From NCBI GenBank assembly GCA_944322865.1, contig CALUQJ010000003.1:1-55663 (forward strand): a stretch of DNA of 55,663 nt, written 5' to 3'. Each line of letters opens with the position of its first letter. The stretch's first letter is position 1. Source of the DNA: Candidatus Gastranaerophilales bacterium. GTDB lineage: Bacteria; Cyanobacteriota; Vampirovibrionia; Gastranaerophilales; Gastranaerophilaceae. A program made the translations under genes and the position numbers. A model generated the notes under the pieces. It was not told the origin of the DNA. It worked only from the letters and a program-made list of their open reading frames with translations, and did not search any database. Below are positions 21,841 to 55,663 of the stretch, piece after piece.

Positions 21841-21913
21841 GCGCTTGTAGCTCAGCAGGTAGAGCACTCCCCTTTTAAGGGATAGGTCGCGCGTTCGAAT
21901 CGCGCCAAGCGCA
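21841..21913 (+). tRNA. tRNA-Lys (anticodon UUU)
   Basis: The 73-nt cloverleaf folds completely. The acceptor stem is GCGCTTG with CAAGCGC, the D arm GCTC/GAGC and the T arm GCGCG/CGCGC with TTCGAAT loop. The anticodon loop CTTTTAA gives UUU. The first anticodon-stem pair is a C-T mismatch. The discriminator is A and CCA is not encoded. Confidence 0.96.
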
Positions 21914-22090
21914 TATTTTTTTGCCTTTGTGTTGGCAATTGCTCACAAAATGCTCACTGTTTTTTCAAGAATATTATTTTTGCCCCTATCATCCTAAAGT
22001 CTTACGGTTTCTCAATCGCATTTTCAGCAGGTGGCACCCCCTTTTATTCAAAGTTTTTTTATAGTATAATTTTAAAAAAAGGAGGTTTTT

Positions 22091-22591
22091 ATGGCTAAAG
22101 AGTGTAGTTTTGATATTGTATCAGAATTTGACCGTCAAGAACTTGTCAACGCAATTGATCAGGTTAAAAGAGATGTTGCATCTCGTTTTGATTTAAAAGA
22201 TTCAAATTCGTCAGTTGAACTTGAGGCTGACAAAGCAATAACAGTTACTACTGCTGATGAAATGAAATTAAAAAATATCTATGATATACTTCAATCTAAA
22301 CTTGTAAAACGCAATATAAGCATTAAAGTTCTTGATCCACAGCCTATTGAAAATGCCCTTGGCGGTAACGTAAGACAGGTTTATAAATTAAAAAAAGGAC
22401 TTACTCAGGAGCTTGCAAAAAAAATTGTCGCTGATATTAAAGACTTGAAAAAGAAAGTGCAAGCCTCAATTCAAGGTGATCAGGTTCGTGTATCAGGCAA
22501 AGACAAAGATGAATTGCAAAGTATAATCCAGGCTCTCAGAAAAAATGAAGACAAATACGATTATCCGCTGCAATTCACAAACTACAGATAA
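22091..22591 (+). CDS. yajQ: YajQ family nucleotide-binding protein (UPF0234)
   Basis: The 166-residue protein matches the family along its whole length: ECSFDIVSEFDRQELVNAIDQ at the start, RFDLKDS, a GGNVRQVYKLKKGL centre, then IKDLKKKVQASIQGDQVRVSGKDKDELQ and the C-terminal PLQFTNYR. YajQ folds as two ferredoxin-like domains; some members bind cyclic di-GMP or nucleic acids, and the role in this lineage is unknown. A canonical GGAGG lies 6 nt upstream. A TATAAT box at 22065-22070 suggests a promoter 20 bp before the start. It is monocistronic, with a GC-rich terminator. Confidence 0.95.
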   Translation: MAKECSFDIVSEFDRQELVNAIDQVKRDVASRFDLKDSNSSVELEADKAITVTTADEMKLKNIYDILQSKLVKRNISIKVLDPQPIENALGGNVRQVYKLKKGLTQELAKKIVADIKDLKKKVQASIQGDQVRVSGKDKDELQSIIQALRKNEDKYDYPLQFTNYR

Positions 22592-22613
22592 CGACATTAT
22601 ATAGGAGCTATGG

Positions 22614-22650
22614 AGCGGGCACAGACTTTTGGTCTGTGCCCGCTTGTAAA
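22614..22650 (+). terminator. GC-rich terminator hairpin after yajQ
   Basis: A perfect 12-bp stem (22615-22626 with 22632-22643), almost all G/C, with loop TTTTG. It is far more GC-rich than its surroundings and is followed only by TTGTAAAAA, so termination efficiency is uncertain. Confidence 0.7.
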
Positions 22651-22847
22651 AATATGCCCCCTTTCCCATAAAGCATATTCTTACGTTATTAATTTAATAT
22701 ACTAAAAAATCTATTATTCTTAAAGTTGTTAATTATATAGCATAATGTTTTAGTTTAATTGTCAACCGGTATATAATCTGTTGATTTATGTTAATTGTGC
22801 AAGTTTAGTTAAATAATTATATTAATAGTTATTACAAGGACTGTGCA

Positions 22848-23162
22848 ATGTCTGATTTTAAAAAATTACTCGGAAAACGTATTAAAGAAATTAGAAAATC
22901 AAAAAATTTAACCCAGGAAAAGCTTGTTGAACTTATTAATATAGAAGTTCCAAGTATGAGTTATATTGAAACAGGAAAGTTTGCCCCATCAGTTGAAACA
23001 CTGCAAAAATTATCAGAAGTTTTGCAGGTTAAACCGTGGGAATTTTATTATTTTGAAACTCTCACGCAGGAAGAAATGATTAATGAACTTATTACTACAC
23101 TAAAACATAATAAACAATTGACTGAAACTGTTTATTATTTCTACAAATCACTGCCTCAATAG
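22848..23162 (+). CDS. XRE (Cro/CI) family helix-turn-helix regulator, 104 aa
   Basis: An N-terminal HTH_3 domain (residues ~8-65) has the typical LGKRIKEIRKSKNLTQEKL start, a recognition-helix region PSMSYIETGKFAPS, and KLSEVLQVKPWEFY. About 35 helical residues follow, perhaps for dimerisation. It is a DNA-binding transcription factor of unknown target. It could regulate itself or the convergent panD-queA genes, but the sequence does not show operator sites. Its stop codon directly abuts that of panD. Upstream is a 200-bp A/T-rich gap. Confidence 0.88.
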   Translation: MSDFKKLLGKRIKEIRKSKNLTQEKLVELINIEVPSMSYIETGKFAPSVETLQKLSEVLQVKPWEFYYFETLTQEEMINELITTLKHNKQLTETVYYFYKSLPQ

Positions 23163-23516
23163 TTATTGCGTAACAATTTTATTATTATCATCAACAATGA
23201 CAATAGTCGGGTTGTGATTTTTAGCTTCTTCAGGAGTCAGGCTTGCATAAGTCACAATAATAACCTTATCACCAGGCTGAACCTTTCTTGCGGCAGCTCC
23301 ATTCAGACAAATTTCACCAGAGCCTGCTTTTCCTTTGATGATATAAGTTTGAAATCTTTCGCCGTTATTAACATCAAGAATTTCAACCTTTTGCCATTCC
23401 TGCATTTTTGCGGCACGGAGTAAATCTTCATCTATTGTGATAGAGCCTACATAATTCAGATTTGCATCTGTTACAGTTGCTCTGTGTATTTTTGAACTTA
23501 AAAATTCAGTGTACAT
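23163..23516 (-). CDS. panD: Aspartate 1-decarboxylase
   Basis: The 117-residue protein has the family signature. [10 protein letters not shown] includes the catalytic Lys9 and is followed by YVGSITID, where the chain self-cleaves between Gly24 and Ser25, and Ser25 becomes the pyruvoyl cofactor. [18 protein letters not shown] follows. It makes beta-alanine from aspartate for pantothenate and CoA. The start at 23516, with AGAGG upstream, gives the exact family length; an open frame extending further upstream runs into queA. It is downstream of queA by 64 bp on the same strand. CoA synthesis also appears at coaBC (27.1 kb), but panB and panC are not here. Confidence 0.95.
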
Positions 23517-23580
23517 AATATAAACCTCTTTTAAATGATATAACAAACAAGAATAAAATAAAAATACTATTTGTTTTTTA

Positions 23581-24627
23581 TTAACAGATATACATACAGT
23601 CACCATAGCTAAAGAAACGGTATTTGTTTTTTATAGCATCTTCATACGCCTTAAATATCAAGTCTTTTCCTGCAAGTGCACTTACAAGCATTAAAAGTGT
23701 AGATTTTGGCAAATGAAAATTGGTAATCAGATTATCAATAACTTTAAATTCATAAGGCGGATAGATGAATAATCGGGATTCATCATGGCATGCTTTTATT
23801 TCGCCGTATTTTTGATAAGCTGTTTCAAGAGTTCTGACGGTTGTTGTGCCAACAGCAATAATCTTTTTTCCGGCAGCTTTTGCTTTATTGATTATATCGG
23901 CGGTTTCTTGTGAAATTTCAAATGTTTCAGAGTGCATTTTATGCTCAAGTATATTTTCGCACTTTACAGGACGGAAAGTGCCAAGCCCAACATTTAAAGT
24001 TACATAAGCAATTTCAACGCCTTTATTTTTTAGTTTTTTAAGTATTTCCTGAGTAAAATGCAGACCGGCTGTAGGGGCTGCAACAGAACCTTCATCTTTT
24101 GCGTAAACAGTCTGATAACGTTCAAAATCCAATTTTTTTATTTCATCAGATTGCATTTTACGTTCAATGTATGGCGGAAGCGGAATATTGCCGTTACGGT
24201 GAAGGACATCCAGAACATTGCCTTCATATATCAGTTCAACAATCCAGCCGCCATCCTCTTCGGTTTTTGCAAGAGTTCTGGCTGATAATTCATCACTTAT
24301 TTTTACGACAGTGCCTGATTTAACGCGTTTTGACGGCTTAATAAGAGTTTCCCATTTTTTACCGTCCAGTTGTTTTAACAAAAAAATCTCTATTTTTGCA
24401 CCGGTTTCTTCTTTTTGACCATATAATCTTGCCGGCATGACTTTTGTGTTATTCAGAACGAGCAGACAGCTTGCATCTATGATATCAACAATGTCGTAAA
24501 AATGTTTGTGTGAAATTGTTTGAGAATGCCTGTCAAGTACAAGCATTCTTGAATTTTCGCGTTTATCCGCCGGCATTTGTGCTATTAGTTCTTCGGGTAA
24601 ATTGTAGTCAAATTCTGATAGTAACAT
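23581..24627 (-). CDS. queA: S-adenosylmethionine:tRNA ribosyltransferase-isomerase
   Basis: The 348-residue protein has [29 protein letters not shown] at its start and the family blocks [53 protein letters not shown] and [17 protein letters not shown]. QueA transfers and isomerises the ribosyl group of SAM onto 7-aminomethyl-7-deazaguanine at position 34 of tRNA, a late step of queuosine synthesis. The start at 24627 is chosen because GAGG lies 5-6 nt upstream. It follows a yidC terminator and leads into panD. Confidence 0.96.
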
Positions 24628-24643
24628 ATTTTCCTCATGCAAA

Positions 24644-24671
24644 ATTTTACCCTCTGGGTTGAGGGTAAAAT
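24644..24671 (-). terminator. Terminator between yidC and queA
   Basis: A perfect 11-bp stem ATTTTACCCTC/GAGGGTAAAAT (24644-24654, 24661-24671) with a 6-nt loop starts 5 bp beyond the yidC stop. It ends just before the queA ribosome binding site, so it may attenuate rather than fully block read-through. Confidence 0.75.
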
Positions 24672-24675
24672 CTTT

Positions 24676-25761
24676 TTATTCTTTGTTTTCTATTTTTCTT
24701 GCGCCTTTCAAATCGTCATCTGCAACAACTGCTTTTTTATTTGCATCTTCAAGATCCATTTGTTTGTTGACTATAACAGTCTGCAAAATCTGGATTAAAT
24801 TACTTGTTATAAGATATAGGAAAACGCCTGCCGGAATCGGGATTATGATGAAGGTACCGATAATCATAATCGGCATGAAGGTTCCCATAGATTTTTGTAT
24901 TGCCTGCTGTGTCGGATCCTGAGAAGAATTATTCTGGGTTGACATCATAATTTTTTGAGAAAGATACATTGTCAATCCAAATAATGCAATCAGCACGAGA
25001 ATATCCCAGTGGAAAGAGCGCTGAACAGCGATTGACGGAACAGAGGCAATGAGCAATCCTTCTTTGCGTTCAAAATTAACCTTTTCGGTTTCTTTTGTGT
25101 TCAAATCTGTAATACTCATTTCAGCAGTTGCAATGTTATCAAGCTGGCTGAATTTCAGATCCAGATGATCAAGACTCATTTTAAATTCGATATTTTCACC
25201 CGGAACAAGTTGACCTTGAATTTCGAGTGCTTTATTTGGTTTGTCAATTTTTACATTGTCCAAAACATCGTTATTTTTTAGAACGACTTTAGCGGTTTTA
25301 CCGAGAATAAAGTTGTCATATTGAGATGCGCCCATAACGCCGTCGTTTGAAATACCTGCTGTTGCACGGAGAGTTGTATCAAGTCTGTTTACAAACAAAA
25401 ATGATGTATCGCCCGCCATTTGGATAAATTGCGGACTCATTAAAGCAGAATATAACAGAATGAATATAGGCATCTGAATTAATAATGGCAAACATCCGCC
25501 CATAGGGTTAAACTTGTGTTCTTTATAGAACTCCATCATTTTCTGCTGCATTTTTTGCGGGTCGTTTTTGTATCGGTCTTGAATAGCTTTCATTTTAGGC
25601 TGGAGAGTCTGCATAGTTTTCATAGAACGCTGTTGTGACACATTGAGCGGCCAGAGGGCAATTCTTACAATTATTGTTAAAACAATTATTGCAATGCCGT
25701 AATTTCCGACAAAATGTGCTAAACCTTTTAGTAATTCAATGGTTAAAGTAGTAAAATCCAA
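24676..25761 (-). CDS. yidC: Membrane protein insertase YidC/Oxa1 family
   Basis: The 361-residue protein has five probable membrane helices: one near the N-terminus (about 18-40), a cytosolic helical hairpin rich in Lys/Gln/Met (KTMQTLQPKMKAIQDRYKND), the CLPLLIQMPIFILLYSAL helix, then a ~110-residue extracytoplasmic insert (about 125-250), and three helices to the C-terminus (FHWDILVLIALFGL, the IMIIGTFIIIPIP region, and GVFLYLITSNLIQILQ). YidC inserts and folds inner-membrane proteins alone or with SecYEG. The start codon is TTG with AGGGAAA upstream; no in-frame ATG is available. It is not in the common rpmH-rnpA-yidC neighbourhood. The C-terminal tail is charged. Confidence 0.93.
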   Translation of the reverse strand: MDFTTLTIELLKGLAHFVGNYGIAIIVLTIIVRIALWPLNVSQQRSMKTMQTLQPKMKAIQDRYKNDPQKMQQKMMEFYKEHKFNPMGGCLPLLIQMPIFILLYSALMSPQFIQMAGDTSFLFVNRLDTTLRATAGISNDGVMGASQYDNFILGKTAKVVLKNNDVLDNVKIDKPNKALEIQGQLVPGENIEFKMSLDHLDLKFSQLDNIATAEMSITDLNTKETEKVNFERKEGLLIASVPSIAVQRSFHWDILVLIALFGLTMYLSQKIMMSTQNNSSQDPTQQAIQKSMGTFMPIMIIGTFIIIPIPAGVFLYLITSNLIQILQTVIVNKQMDLEDANKKAVVADDDLKGARKIENKE

Positions 25762-54514: not shown

Positions 54515-54613
54515 ACGGATAAAGTTAAAATGTTGGTCAGGTATGCTCAACATTAAAATATGACACTAATCGGACTCCAGCATTCGGGTGGGGGTGGACA
54601 GGTCCACTTTTAC

Positions 54614-54887
54614 ACATTGGAACGATATTGATGTTATCGCCTTTTGCACAAACTTAGAATGCAGTACAGACTTAAAAGCCGGCTAATAACGGTCATTGTT
54701 GCGCCGTCATTCCGCAACAGCACACGAAGTGTGCTCTTATACATTGGAACGATATTGGAGTTGTCGCCTTTTGCTCAAACTTAAAATGCAGTACAGACTT
54801 AAAAGTCGGCTAATAACGGTCACCGTTGCGCCGTCATCCCGCAACAGCACACGAAGTGTGCTCTTATACATTGGAACGATATTGGTA
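54614..54887. repeat. 127-bp tandem direct repeat (two copies and a partial third)
   Basis: Copies at 54614-54740 and 54741-54867 with a partial from 54868; each starts ACATTGGAACGATATTG and has a hairpin AGCACAC-GAA-GTGTGCT near the end. The copies differ at only a few positions (GATGTT/GAGTTG, GCACA/GCTCA, GCCGG/GTCGG, TCATTG/TCACCG, ATTCC/ATCCC). Confidence 0.9.
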
Positions 54888-54893
54888 TGTTTT

Positions 54894-55096
54894 AAAGGGC
54901 AACATGGAAAATCCCACATTGCCTTATTTTTGAAATGAACTTAACGTCTTAGCGTCTTAACGTCTTTTGAACAAGGCAACGCTAAAATCTTGCATTGCCT
55001 TATTTTTGTAAAGAACTTATTCCCTTATTTCCCTATTCCCTTATTCCCTTAAAAAAGGGCAACATGGAAAATTCCACATTGCCTATTTTTTGTAAA
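54894..55096. repeat. Three tandem terminator-like units, 76-84 bp period
   Basis: GGCAACATGG...CCACATTGCC, GGCAACGC...GCATTGCC and GGCAACATGG...CCACATTGCC again, each ending TTATTTTTG or TATTTTTTG and followed by a variable linker starting GAACTTA. The GCCT of the stems lie at 54921, 54997 and 55081. Confidence 0.85.
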
Positions 55097-55134
55097 GAAC
55101 TTATTCCCTTATTTCCTTATTCCCCTATTCCCTT

Positions 55135-55163
55135 CCAATAAGAGGACAGTGTCCTCTTATTGG
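55135..55163. repeat. 29-bp perfect palindrome across the stop codon of the edge gene
   Basis: Arms 55135-55148 and 55150-55163 (14 bp each, one central base). It spans the last codon and stop of the edge gene. No poly-T follows on the minus strand (AAGGGAATA), so an ordinary terminator is unlikely. The position matches the hairpin/cruciform that follows the variable region of DGR target genes. Confidence 0.75.
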
Positions 55164-55663
55164 TCCAGGCAAACCGCGAGTAAGTCGCTGTGGGTGCGGA
55201 ATTTGTGGGTCCAGCCCGTGTCGGTAGGGTAGAAGCCGCGGCGGTACGCGAAGTACTGGCTGTACTCCTGCCCGGACCAAACGTAGAAGTAGGAATAAGG
55301 TGATTGAGCTAAGAAGAGCGAAGCTCGATCAGCATCCCAGTTCGCAAAGGTTATAGTAGTTCCACCCTTAATTTCATCGGCATCAGGATATATGTATGCC
55401 GCTAATTGTTCTAGCTGAGCTTGAGTTGGCATGTTTTGGACTCCGCCGCAGGCTCTTACTGCTCCTGCCCAATAATCTGAGTTATAGTCGCATGCTGTTA
55501 TTCCTAATTTGCCTTCTGATACTGCTTGGTTACATTCTTCTAATGTCATAGGGCTATAGCCGCCGTTTTGTGGTCCTAATATCTGTGTTATACACATTGT
55601 ATCTTTTAATTCTGGTATCATGCAACCTGTTACGCCTGCTAATTGTTCTACGTTTATCTTACC
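55157..55663 (-). CDS. C-terminal part of a candidate DGR target protein (C-type-lectin-like end); 5' truncated by the window edge
   Basis: The minus-strand frame is open to the last base, so ~168 residues are visible and the start is outside. Conserved Trp/Cys/Gly spacing (TFANWDADRA, then YVWSGQEYSQYF, and AVCLDQ at the end) is like the C-type-lectin fold tails of FGE/FISUMP-like proteins used as DGR targets. Up to about 55300 the codons are A/T-rich like the genome; the last 44 codons switch to C-ending: 28 of 44 end in C and 38 of 44 in G or C. Residues at these NNC codons are Tyr, Phe, Ser, Arg, Gly, Thr, Asp, His, as expected if template AAC codons were mutated at A. Likely surface or secreted ligand binder. 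Pilin-like N-terminus cannot be checked. Confidence 0.6.
   Translation of the reverse strand, partial: GKINVEQLAGVTGCMIPELKDTMCITQILGPQNGGYSPMTLEECNQAVSEGKLGITACDYNSDYWAGAVRACGGVQNMPTQAQLEQLAAYIYPDADEIKGGTTITFANWDADRASLFLAQSPYSYFYVWSGQEYSQYFAYRRGFYPTDTGWTHKFRTHSDLLAVCLDQ
55164..55290 (-). other. Candidate DGR variable region (VR)
   Basis: The segment combines three marks of a DGR VR: it is at the 3' end of a gene with a C-type-lectin-like tail; it is dominated by NNC codons with free first and second positions in an otherwise NNA/NNT genome; and a perfect palindrome follows immediately. The template repeat, the reverse transcriptase and the accessory gene are not in the window, so identification is incomplete. 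Confidence 0.5.

What the first reader, a model, noticed from the sequence alone, without database searches (positions are those of the whole stretch)
55157..55300. Candidate diversity-generating retroelement variable region at the right edge
The last ~130 bp of the truncated edge gene differ sharply from the rest: 28 of 44 codons end in C and 38 of 44 in G/C, in a genome that prefers A/T endings. NNC codons with varied first and second bases are what adenine mutagenesis of template AAC codons makes. The C-terminal Trp-Ser-Gly...Cys-Leu tail fits a C-type-lectin fold, and a perfect palindrome follows the stop. No RT or template repeat is in the window.
Basis: partly seen in the sequence, partly recalled or inferred. 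Interest (0 to 1): 0.88.

Follow-up and report, generated by a model that had tools for sequence, protein, structure and literature searches.

The report
One mutation cassette, 23 pilin-like genes
The edge gene is one of about 23 scattered genes for pilus-like surface proteins whose tips are deliberately scrambled by a single "mutation cassette" (a diversity-generating retroelement) elsewhere in the genome of this gut bacterium, an unusually large set of targets for such a cassette.

Summary
The finding holds. Window 55167-55288 (minus strand) is a variable region (VR) of a diversity-generating retroelement (DGR). Against this TR the window VR differs at 20 of 41 adenines and 1 of 81 other bases. 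The same TR fits 23 loci in this 1.8 Mb genome, all with different flanks; 17 differ from it at no more than 2 non-adenine bases. All 14 exact genome matches to the palindrome pattern lie just downstream of a VR, and stems covary, as expected for the DGR target hairpin/cruciform. Targets are type IV pilin-like proteins ending in a predicted C-type-lectin domain. A second genus has two cassettes with TR-matched VR sets of at least 20 and 9. Four of five other species in the genus keep large arrays of such genes but no DGR reverse transcriptase. Mechanistically this is an ordinary DGR. Unusual are the number of dispersed targets per cassette, above those in the papers I could read, and the pilin-like target class. 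Activity is inferred from sequence, not measured.

The parts
55157..55663 (-). DGR target gene, 3' part (168 codons, 5' end cut by the contig end): C-terminal half of a type IV pilin-like protein
   Evidence: ORF; 54% identical to residues 207-362 of the one complete paralogue C54 (L022); N_methyl prepilin motif in 38 of 39 full-length homologues
55167..55288 (-). Variable region (VR), 122 bp
   Evidence: Aligned without gaps to TR G000:C23:1572-1693: 20/41 A sites and 1/81 non-A sites differ
55167..55180 (-). Unchanging 3' end of the VR, sense CTCGCGGTTTGCCT, identical in TR: IMH-like initiation site (assigned by position and identity)
   Evidence: Alignment of TR and 23 VRs
55135..55163 (.). 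Inverted repeat, 13-bp arms and 3-base loop, overlapping the stop codon: DGR target hairpin/cruciform
   Evidence: Pattern TAAGAGGN{3,9}CCTCTTA occurs 14 times in the genome, all just downstream of VRs; stem covariation; no palindrome found next to TR
55157..55636 (-). Predicted C-type-lectin-like domain that carries the VR
   Evidence: AlphaFold2 mean pLDDT 90.6; PDB matches 8oks Z 8.2, intimin 7.6, EMS16 7.1, BDCA2 6.5

Best explanation
The region is a VR of a cellular DGR. One cassette on another contig (bAvd, TR, RT) copies the TR RNA into cDNA with random bases opposite adenines; the cDNA replaces the 3' end of target genes that share the IMH-like sequence CTCGCGGTTTGCCT and a hairpin/cruciform just downstream. 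Here about 23 dispersed genes carry such a VR. They encode type IV pilin-like proteins with a C-terminal C-type-lectin-like domain, so the likely result is a repertoire of pilus or pseudopilus subunits with different binding faces on the cell surface. Shown by sequence: cassette, TR, VRs, adenine restriction, hairpins, prepilin motif, prepilin peptidase and PilC/GspF-type gene in the genome, predicted lectin fold. Inferred: current activity, mutagenic retrohoming as in phage BPP-1, assembly into a filament, ligand binding.
For: TR and cassette. Adenine restriction: window 20/41 against 1/81, and over 19 ungapped VRs 372/779 A against 66/1539 non-A (p about 2e-137; 42 of those 66 come from L026, which has an indel); gapped alignment of all 23 VRs: A 0.461, C 0.034, G 0.028, T 0.027. 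Recent activity: window and L030 are 98% identical in the gene body just upstream but 34% at A sites and 99% at non-A VR sites. 23 separate loci: no pair of downstream flanks is similar. Hairpin specificity and covariation. Second genus, same pattern: G065 TR1 with 20 VRs (A 0.435, others 0.05-0.08) and TR2 with 9 VRs (A 0.454, others 0.03-0.05). Pilin-like; T4P machinery.
Against: No read-level or strain-level data, so activity is not shown. Only one full-length target is assembled in this genome; most targets are cut at contig ends, and fewer 5' halves than 3' halves were found, so some could be partial genes. At least three copies (C8, C45, C27 right end) carry many non-A changes and look decayed.
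Confidence: 0.95

Rival explanations
1. Retired array: the VRs were made by the DGR in the past and now only drift and recombine; the RT is inactive or being lost.
For: G001, G002, G004 and G005 (96-99% complete) keep many pilin-like paralogues (59-102 matches each), with VR-type tails in those examined (G001, G004), but give no DGR-RT match and no bAvd match. In G001 and G004 the non-A sites have diverged (C sites 0.28 and 0.23 mismatched against 0.034 here). VR tails are shared across gene backgrounds: L228/L251 97.5% identical in VR but 60% upstream; L018 here and L246 in G004 96.7% and 71%.
Against: In this genome 17 of 23 VRs have at most 2 non-A differences from TR, A sites differ widely even between nearly identical gene bodies, and RT, bAvd and TR are intact frames or repeats.
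Confidence: 0.1
2. Strain mixing in the metagenome assembly inflates the count: several 'targets' are alleles of the same gene from co-occurring strains.
For: The genome is a 103-contig assembly and most VRs sit at contig ends.
Against: The sequences 400-2400 bases downstream of the 23 copies show no similarity to each other; contamination is given as 0.13%; in the better assembled G001 and G004 the paralogues are complete genes at separate places.
Confidence: 0.03
3. Not DGR-made: antigenic variation by recombination between silent and expressed pilin genes, with GC-ending codons from foreign origin.
For: Pilin-like paralogues with near-identical bodies and variable tails resemble pilin antigenic variation; VR exchange between paralogues is seen.
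Against: Recombination does not confine differences to template adenines; a dedicated TR, RT and bAvd exist; the C-ending codons follow from 14 AAC codons in TR.
Confidence: 0.01
4. The palindrome is only a transcription terminator.
For: It follows the reading frame.
Against: It overlaps the stop codon and is not followed by a T run; it covaries, and its 14 exact matches in the genome are all at VRs.
Confidence: 0.05

Closest known systems
Bordetella phage BPP-1 DGR (PMC3240598, PMC12875486)
   Same: avd-TR-RT order, A-restricted changes, IMH at the VR 3' end, inverted repeat just downstream of VR that overlaps or adjoins the stop codon
   Different: Phage tail-protein target there; here a cellular pilin-like family with about 23 targets. 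Hairpin stem is 12-13 bp with 3-5 base loops, not 7-10 bp GC-rich with a GRNA 4-base loop
Treponema denticola DGR (PMC4891356)
   Same: One RT and TR serving several dispersed target genes; strains that kept targets after losing RT and TR
   Different: Two to seven targets per strain, many of them lipoproteins; here about 23 pilin-like targets
Thiohalocapsa PB-PSB1 (PMC10907252)
   Same: Many C-type-lectin targets in one genome, some apparently diversified in trans
   Different: Fourteen targets over nine DGR loci, mostly conflict-system proteins; here one cassette for about 23 targets
Cyanobacterial DGRs with remote paralogues (PMC7517822)
   Same: Dispersed C-type-lectin paralogues with VR/TR homology
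   Different: Targets are kinase or caspase fusions; photosynthetic cyanobacteria

Membership tests
Diversity-generating retroelement | TR-VR pair with mismatches confined to TR adenines | tested here: met
   Window VR 20/41 A, 1/81 non-A; 23 VRs A 0.461 against about 0.03 elsewhere
Diversity-generating retroelement | RT of the DGR type near the TR, with (I/V/L)GxxxSQ motif | tested here: met
   L011:1746-2891, RVT_1 47 bits; IGNLTSQ and YVDD read in the translation; motif as in PMC3521204. No phylogeny of DGR RTs was built
Diversity-generating retroelement | Avd accessory gene (most DGRs) | tested here: met
   L011:1005-1376, PF22296 bAvd 62 bits, cut-off 40; NF033474 64.2 bits, under its cut-off of 80
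Diversity-generating retroelement | VR at the 3' end of an ORF, in a C-type-lectin or Ig-like fold | tested here: met
   VR ends 10 bases before the stop codon; predicted C-type-lectin-like fold; prediction, not solved
Diversity-generating retroelement | IMH and downstream hairpin/cruciform at VR, absent at TR | tested here: met
   loop and stem differ from the phage consensus
Diversity-generating retroelement | RT-dependent retrohoming in vivo | not testable with these tools
   Needs experiment or reads
Type IV pilin superfamily (pilins and pseudopilins) | Class III signal peptide / N-terminal methylation motif | tested here: met
   PF07963 in 38 of 39 full-length homologues, including the complete paralogue in this genome; profile matches PDB pilins. 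The window gene itself is cut before this part
Type IV pilin superfamily (pilins and pseudopilins) | Assembled into a filament by the T4P/T2SS machinery | not testable with these tools
   Peptidase_A24 and T2SSF genes are present; assembly unknown

The most novel reading that the evidence does not exclude
The lineage runs a two-layer surface repertoire: a DGR writes new lectin tips into a large dispersed pilin-like family, and recombination then moves finished tips between genes and between species, so that species which lost the RT still use and shuffle the inherited repertoire.
Probability: 0.3. Interest if true: 0.78.

Novelty: new variant of a known kind. Interest (0 to 1): 0.62.

Why it matters
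One RT and one TR appear to serve about 23 unlinked genes in a 1.8 Mb genome, and in a second genus two cassettes split at least 29 genes by TR identity. That gives natural replicates for asking what makes a site a DGR target: 23 VR 3' ends and hairpins, in two spacing classes, with mismatched-stem variants. It also puts targeted hypermutation on pilin-like proteins of uncultured gut Gastranaerophilales, for which I found no report in the library searched, and offers sister species with and without the RT to see how such arrays evolve after loss.

Tried and rejected
DNA searches of relatives score a limited number of candidates (14 for the VR-rich genomes), so VR numbers in G001 and G004 come from fetched genes and are lower bounds. 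Pfam and NCBIfam gave no real match for the truncated window protein; the lectin fold comes from structure prediction only. VIA-align Z of 7 to 8 is middling by the tool's own note; it is taken seriously because nearly all rows with Z of 5 or more share one fold. Solved DGR proteins such as TvpA and Mtd did not appear among the rows, which excludes nothing. No paper in the library names both diversity-generating retroelement and type IV pilin, or Gastranaerophilales and retroelement; subscription papers and preprints are missing. A survey that reports DGRs with dozens to hundreds of VR copies per TR (PMC6642488) gives as its example an atypical case with few A changes inside one giant adhesin gene, so I do not count it as comparable. 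A terminator reading of the palindrome, recombination-only antigenic variation, and strain mixing were considered and set aside (see rivals). A PF00078 hit in G004 (C10:9074-9607) did not match the DGR RT protein search and is taken as another RT type, untested.

Full report
Observation. The right edge of the window holds a minus-strand reading frame, 55663 down to 55157, cut by the contig end. Its last 44 sense codons have 28 ending in C and 38 in G or C, against 24 of 124 ending in C in the rest of the gene (p = 2.4e-7). The palindrome at 55135-55163 overlaps the stop codon.

Template and cassette. Searching the window's own genome (G000, 1.80 Mb, 103 contigs, 99.6% complete) with 55100-55320 gave about two dozen near-copies. 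One, at C23:1572-1697, is not part of a pilin-like gene: it is the template repeat. It lies between a 123-aa bAvd protein and a 381-aa reverse transcriptase with the IGNLTSQ and YVDD motifs. The genes after the RT include HAD-type, NUDIX-type and acetyltransferase-like proteins (my reading of the translations), so I take the cassette as chromosomal, not prophage. The TR holds 14 AAC codons, and NNC codons can never be stops.

Adenine restriction. Over 122 ungapped bases the window VR differs from TR at 20 of 41 adenines and 1 of 81 other bases (p = 1e-10). Over all 23 VRs the mismatch rates are A 0.461, C 0.034, G 0.028, T 0.027. Seventeen VRs have two or fewer non-A differences. Four others (L022 on C54, L026 at the right end of C27, L029 on C45, L032 on C8) have more; L027 and L031 carry 9-base in-frame insertions. 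The window gene and its paralogue L030 are 98% identical in the gene body upstream but share only 34% of A sites in the VR, while non-A VR sites are 99% identical. That contrast argues for recent diversification. The 23 copies are separate loci: no two downstream flanks are alike.

Hairpin. The palindrome pattern TAAGAGGN{3,9}CCTCTTA occurs 14 times in the genome, each time just downstream of a VR, and its backwards control never. Of the other nine VRs, seven carry the same element with small changes, L011vr has a different palindrome and L029 a broken one. None was found next to TR. In one class it overlaps the stop codon; in the other a spacer of about 35 bases (TAATTTTCCAATTCCTGATTCGCGCGATTTTTCC) comes first. 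Across paralogues of three species the stem covaries: 26 cells with changes on both sides against 0-4 when slid, 94% of cells paired (sequences were chosen by me as palindrome-like, which favours pairing). This matches the BPP-1 target hairpin, whose stem structure matters more than its sequence (PMC3240598), but stem length and loops differ from the phage consensus.

Target proteins. The one complete target assembled in G000 (C54, L022, 362 aa) and 37 of 38 homologues from two sister species carry the N_methyl prepilin motif. Its model matches type IV pilins over the first half (PilA5 Z 5.1) and lectin-like domains over the second (8oks Z 8.5, intimin 8.0). The window's own part gives a confident model (mean pLDDT 90.6), whose PDB matches with Z of 5 or more are nearly all intimin or C-type lectins. 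The genome has a prepilin peptidase and a PilC/GspF-type protein. Most targets here are cut by contig ends; in G001 and G004 homologues are complete genes.

Relatives. An RT 76% identical, in G065 (another genus of the same family), lies on a contig of the same length as CALUUN010000019.1, titled Candidatus Gastranaerophilales. I therefore place the organism in Gastranaerophilales (inference). G065 has two cassettes; TR1 fits 20 fetched targets and TR2 nine, each with the A bias, so TR identity partitions targets. In the window's genus only G003 has a DGR RT; G001, G002, G004 and G005 show neither DGR RT nor bAvd, yet have 59-102 matches to the pilin-like protein. In G001 and G004 the VR-type tails keep an A excess but non-A sites have drifted. 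Some VRs are shared across gene backgrounds or species, which suggests recombination; cross-contamination of assemblies cannot be excluded for G001/G004 pairs that also share flanks.

How it works. Shown: cassette, TR, VRs, A restriction, hairpins, prepilin motif. Predicted: lectin fold. Inferred from BPP-1: error-prone cDNA at template adenines, homing through IMH and hairpin into many genes in trans. Inferred: pilus or pseudopilus subunits with varied binding faces. Activity is not shown, because no reads or strains were available.

Known and new. All testable defining features of a DGR are met, so it is a DGR. Multi-target DGRs are known: two to seven in Treponema denticola with one TR and RT (PMC4891356), fourteen over nine loci in Thiohalocapsa PB-PSB1 (PMC10907252), up to four in an early survey (PMC3521204). 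RT loss with leftover targets is also known in T. denticola. About 23 dispersed targets for one cassette, and type IV pilin-like targets, I did not find reported in the open library; subscription papers could hold them.

Noticed in passing
L035:1369-4500 (G000:C24, about 21868-25000): A second RT, fused to a nitrilase-like domain, matches the defence-associated RT UG5-nitrilase model (714 bits); a candidate anti-phage DRT, unrelated to the DGR.
   Followed up: partly
window 54537-55135: Non-coding repeats beside the VR: a unit with ACATTGGAACGATATTGG and GCGCCGTCA..CGCAACAGCACACGAAGTGTGCTC repeated in tandem, and a CTTATTCCCTTATTCCC family dispersed over many contigs, several near contig ends.
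   Followed up: no
G014 and G074 (same family, other genus): 147 and 107 matches to the pilin-like N-terminal half, with DGR RTs in both genomes; their C-terminal halves differ and were not tested as VRs.
   Followed up: no
L228 and L251 (G004); L018 (G000) and L246 (G004): Nearly identical VRs sit in different gene backgrounds, within one genome and between species.
   Followed up: partly
L027 (G000:C55) and L031 (G000:C74): In-frame 9-base insertions inside the AAC-rich part of the VR that the TR lacks, perhaps template slippage.
   Followed up: no
G000 contig ends: About 20 VR-bearing 3' halves end contigs, but fewer 5' halves of the gene were found; short contigs may have been dropped or upstream repeats may break the assembly.
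   Followed up: no
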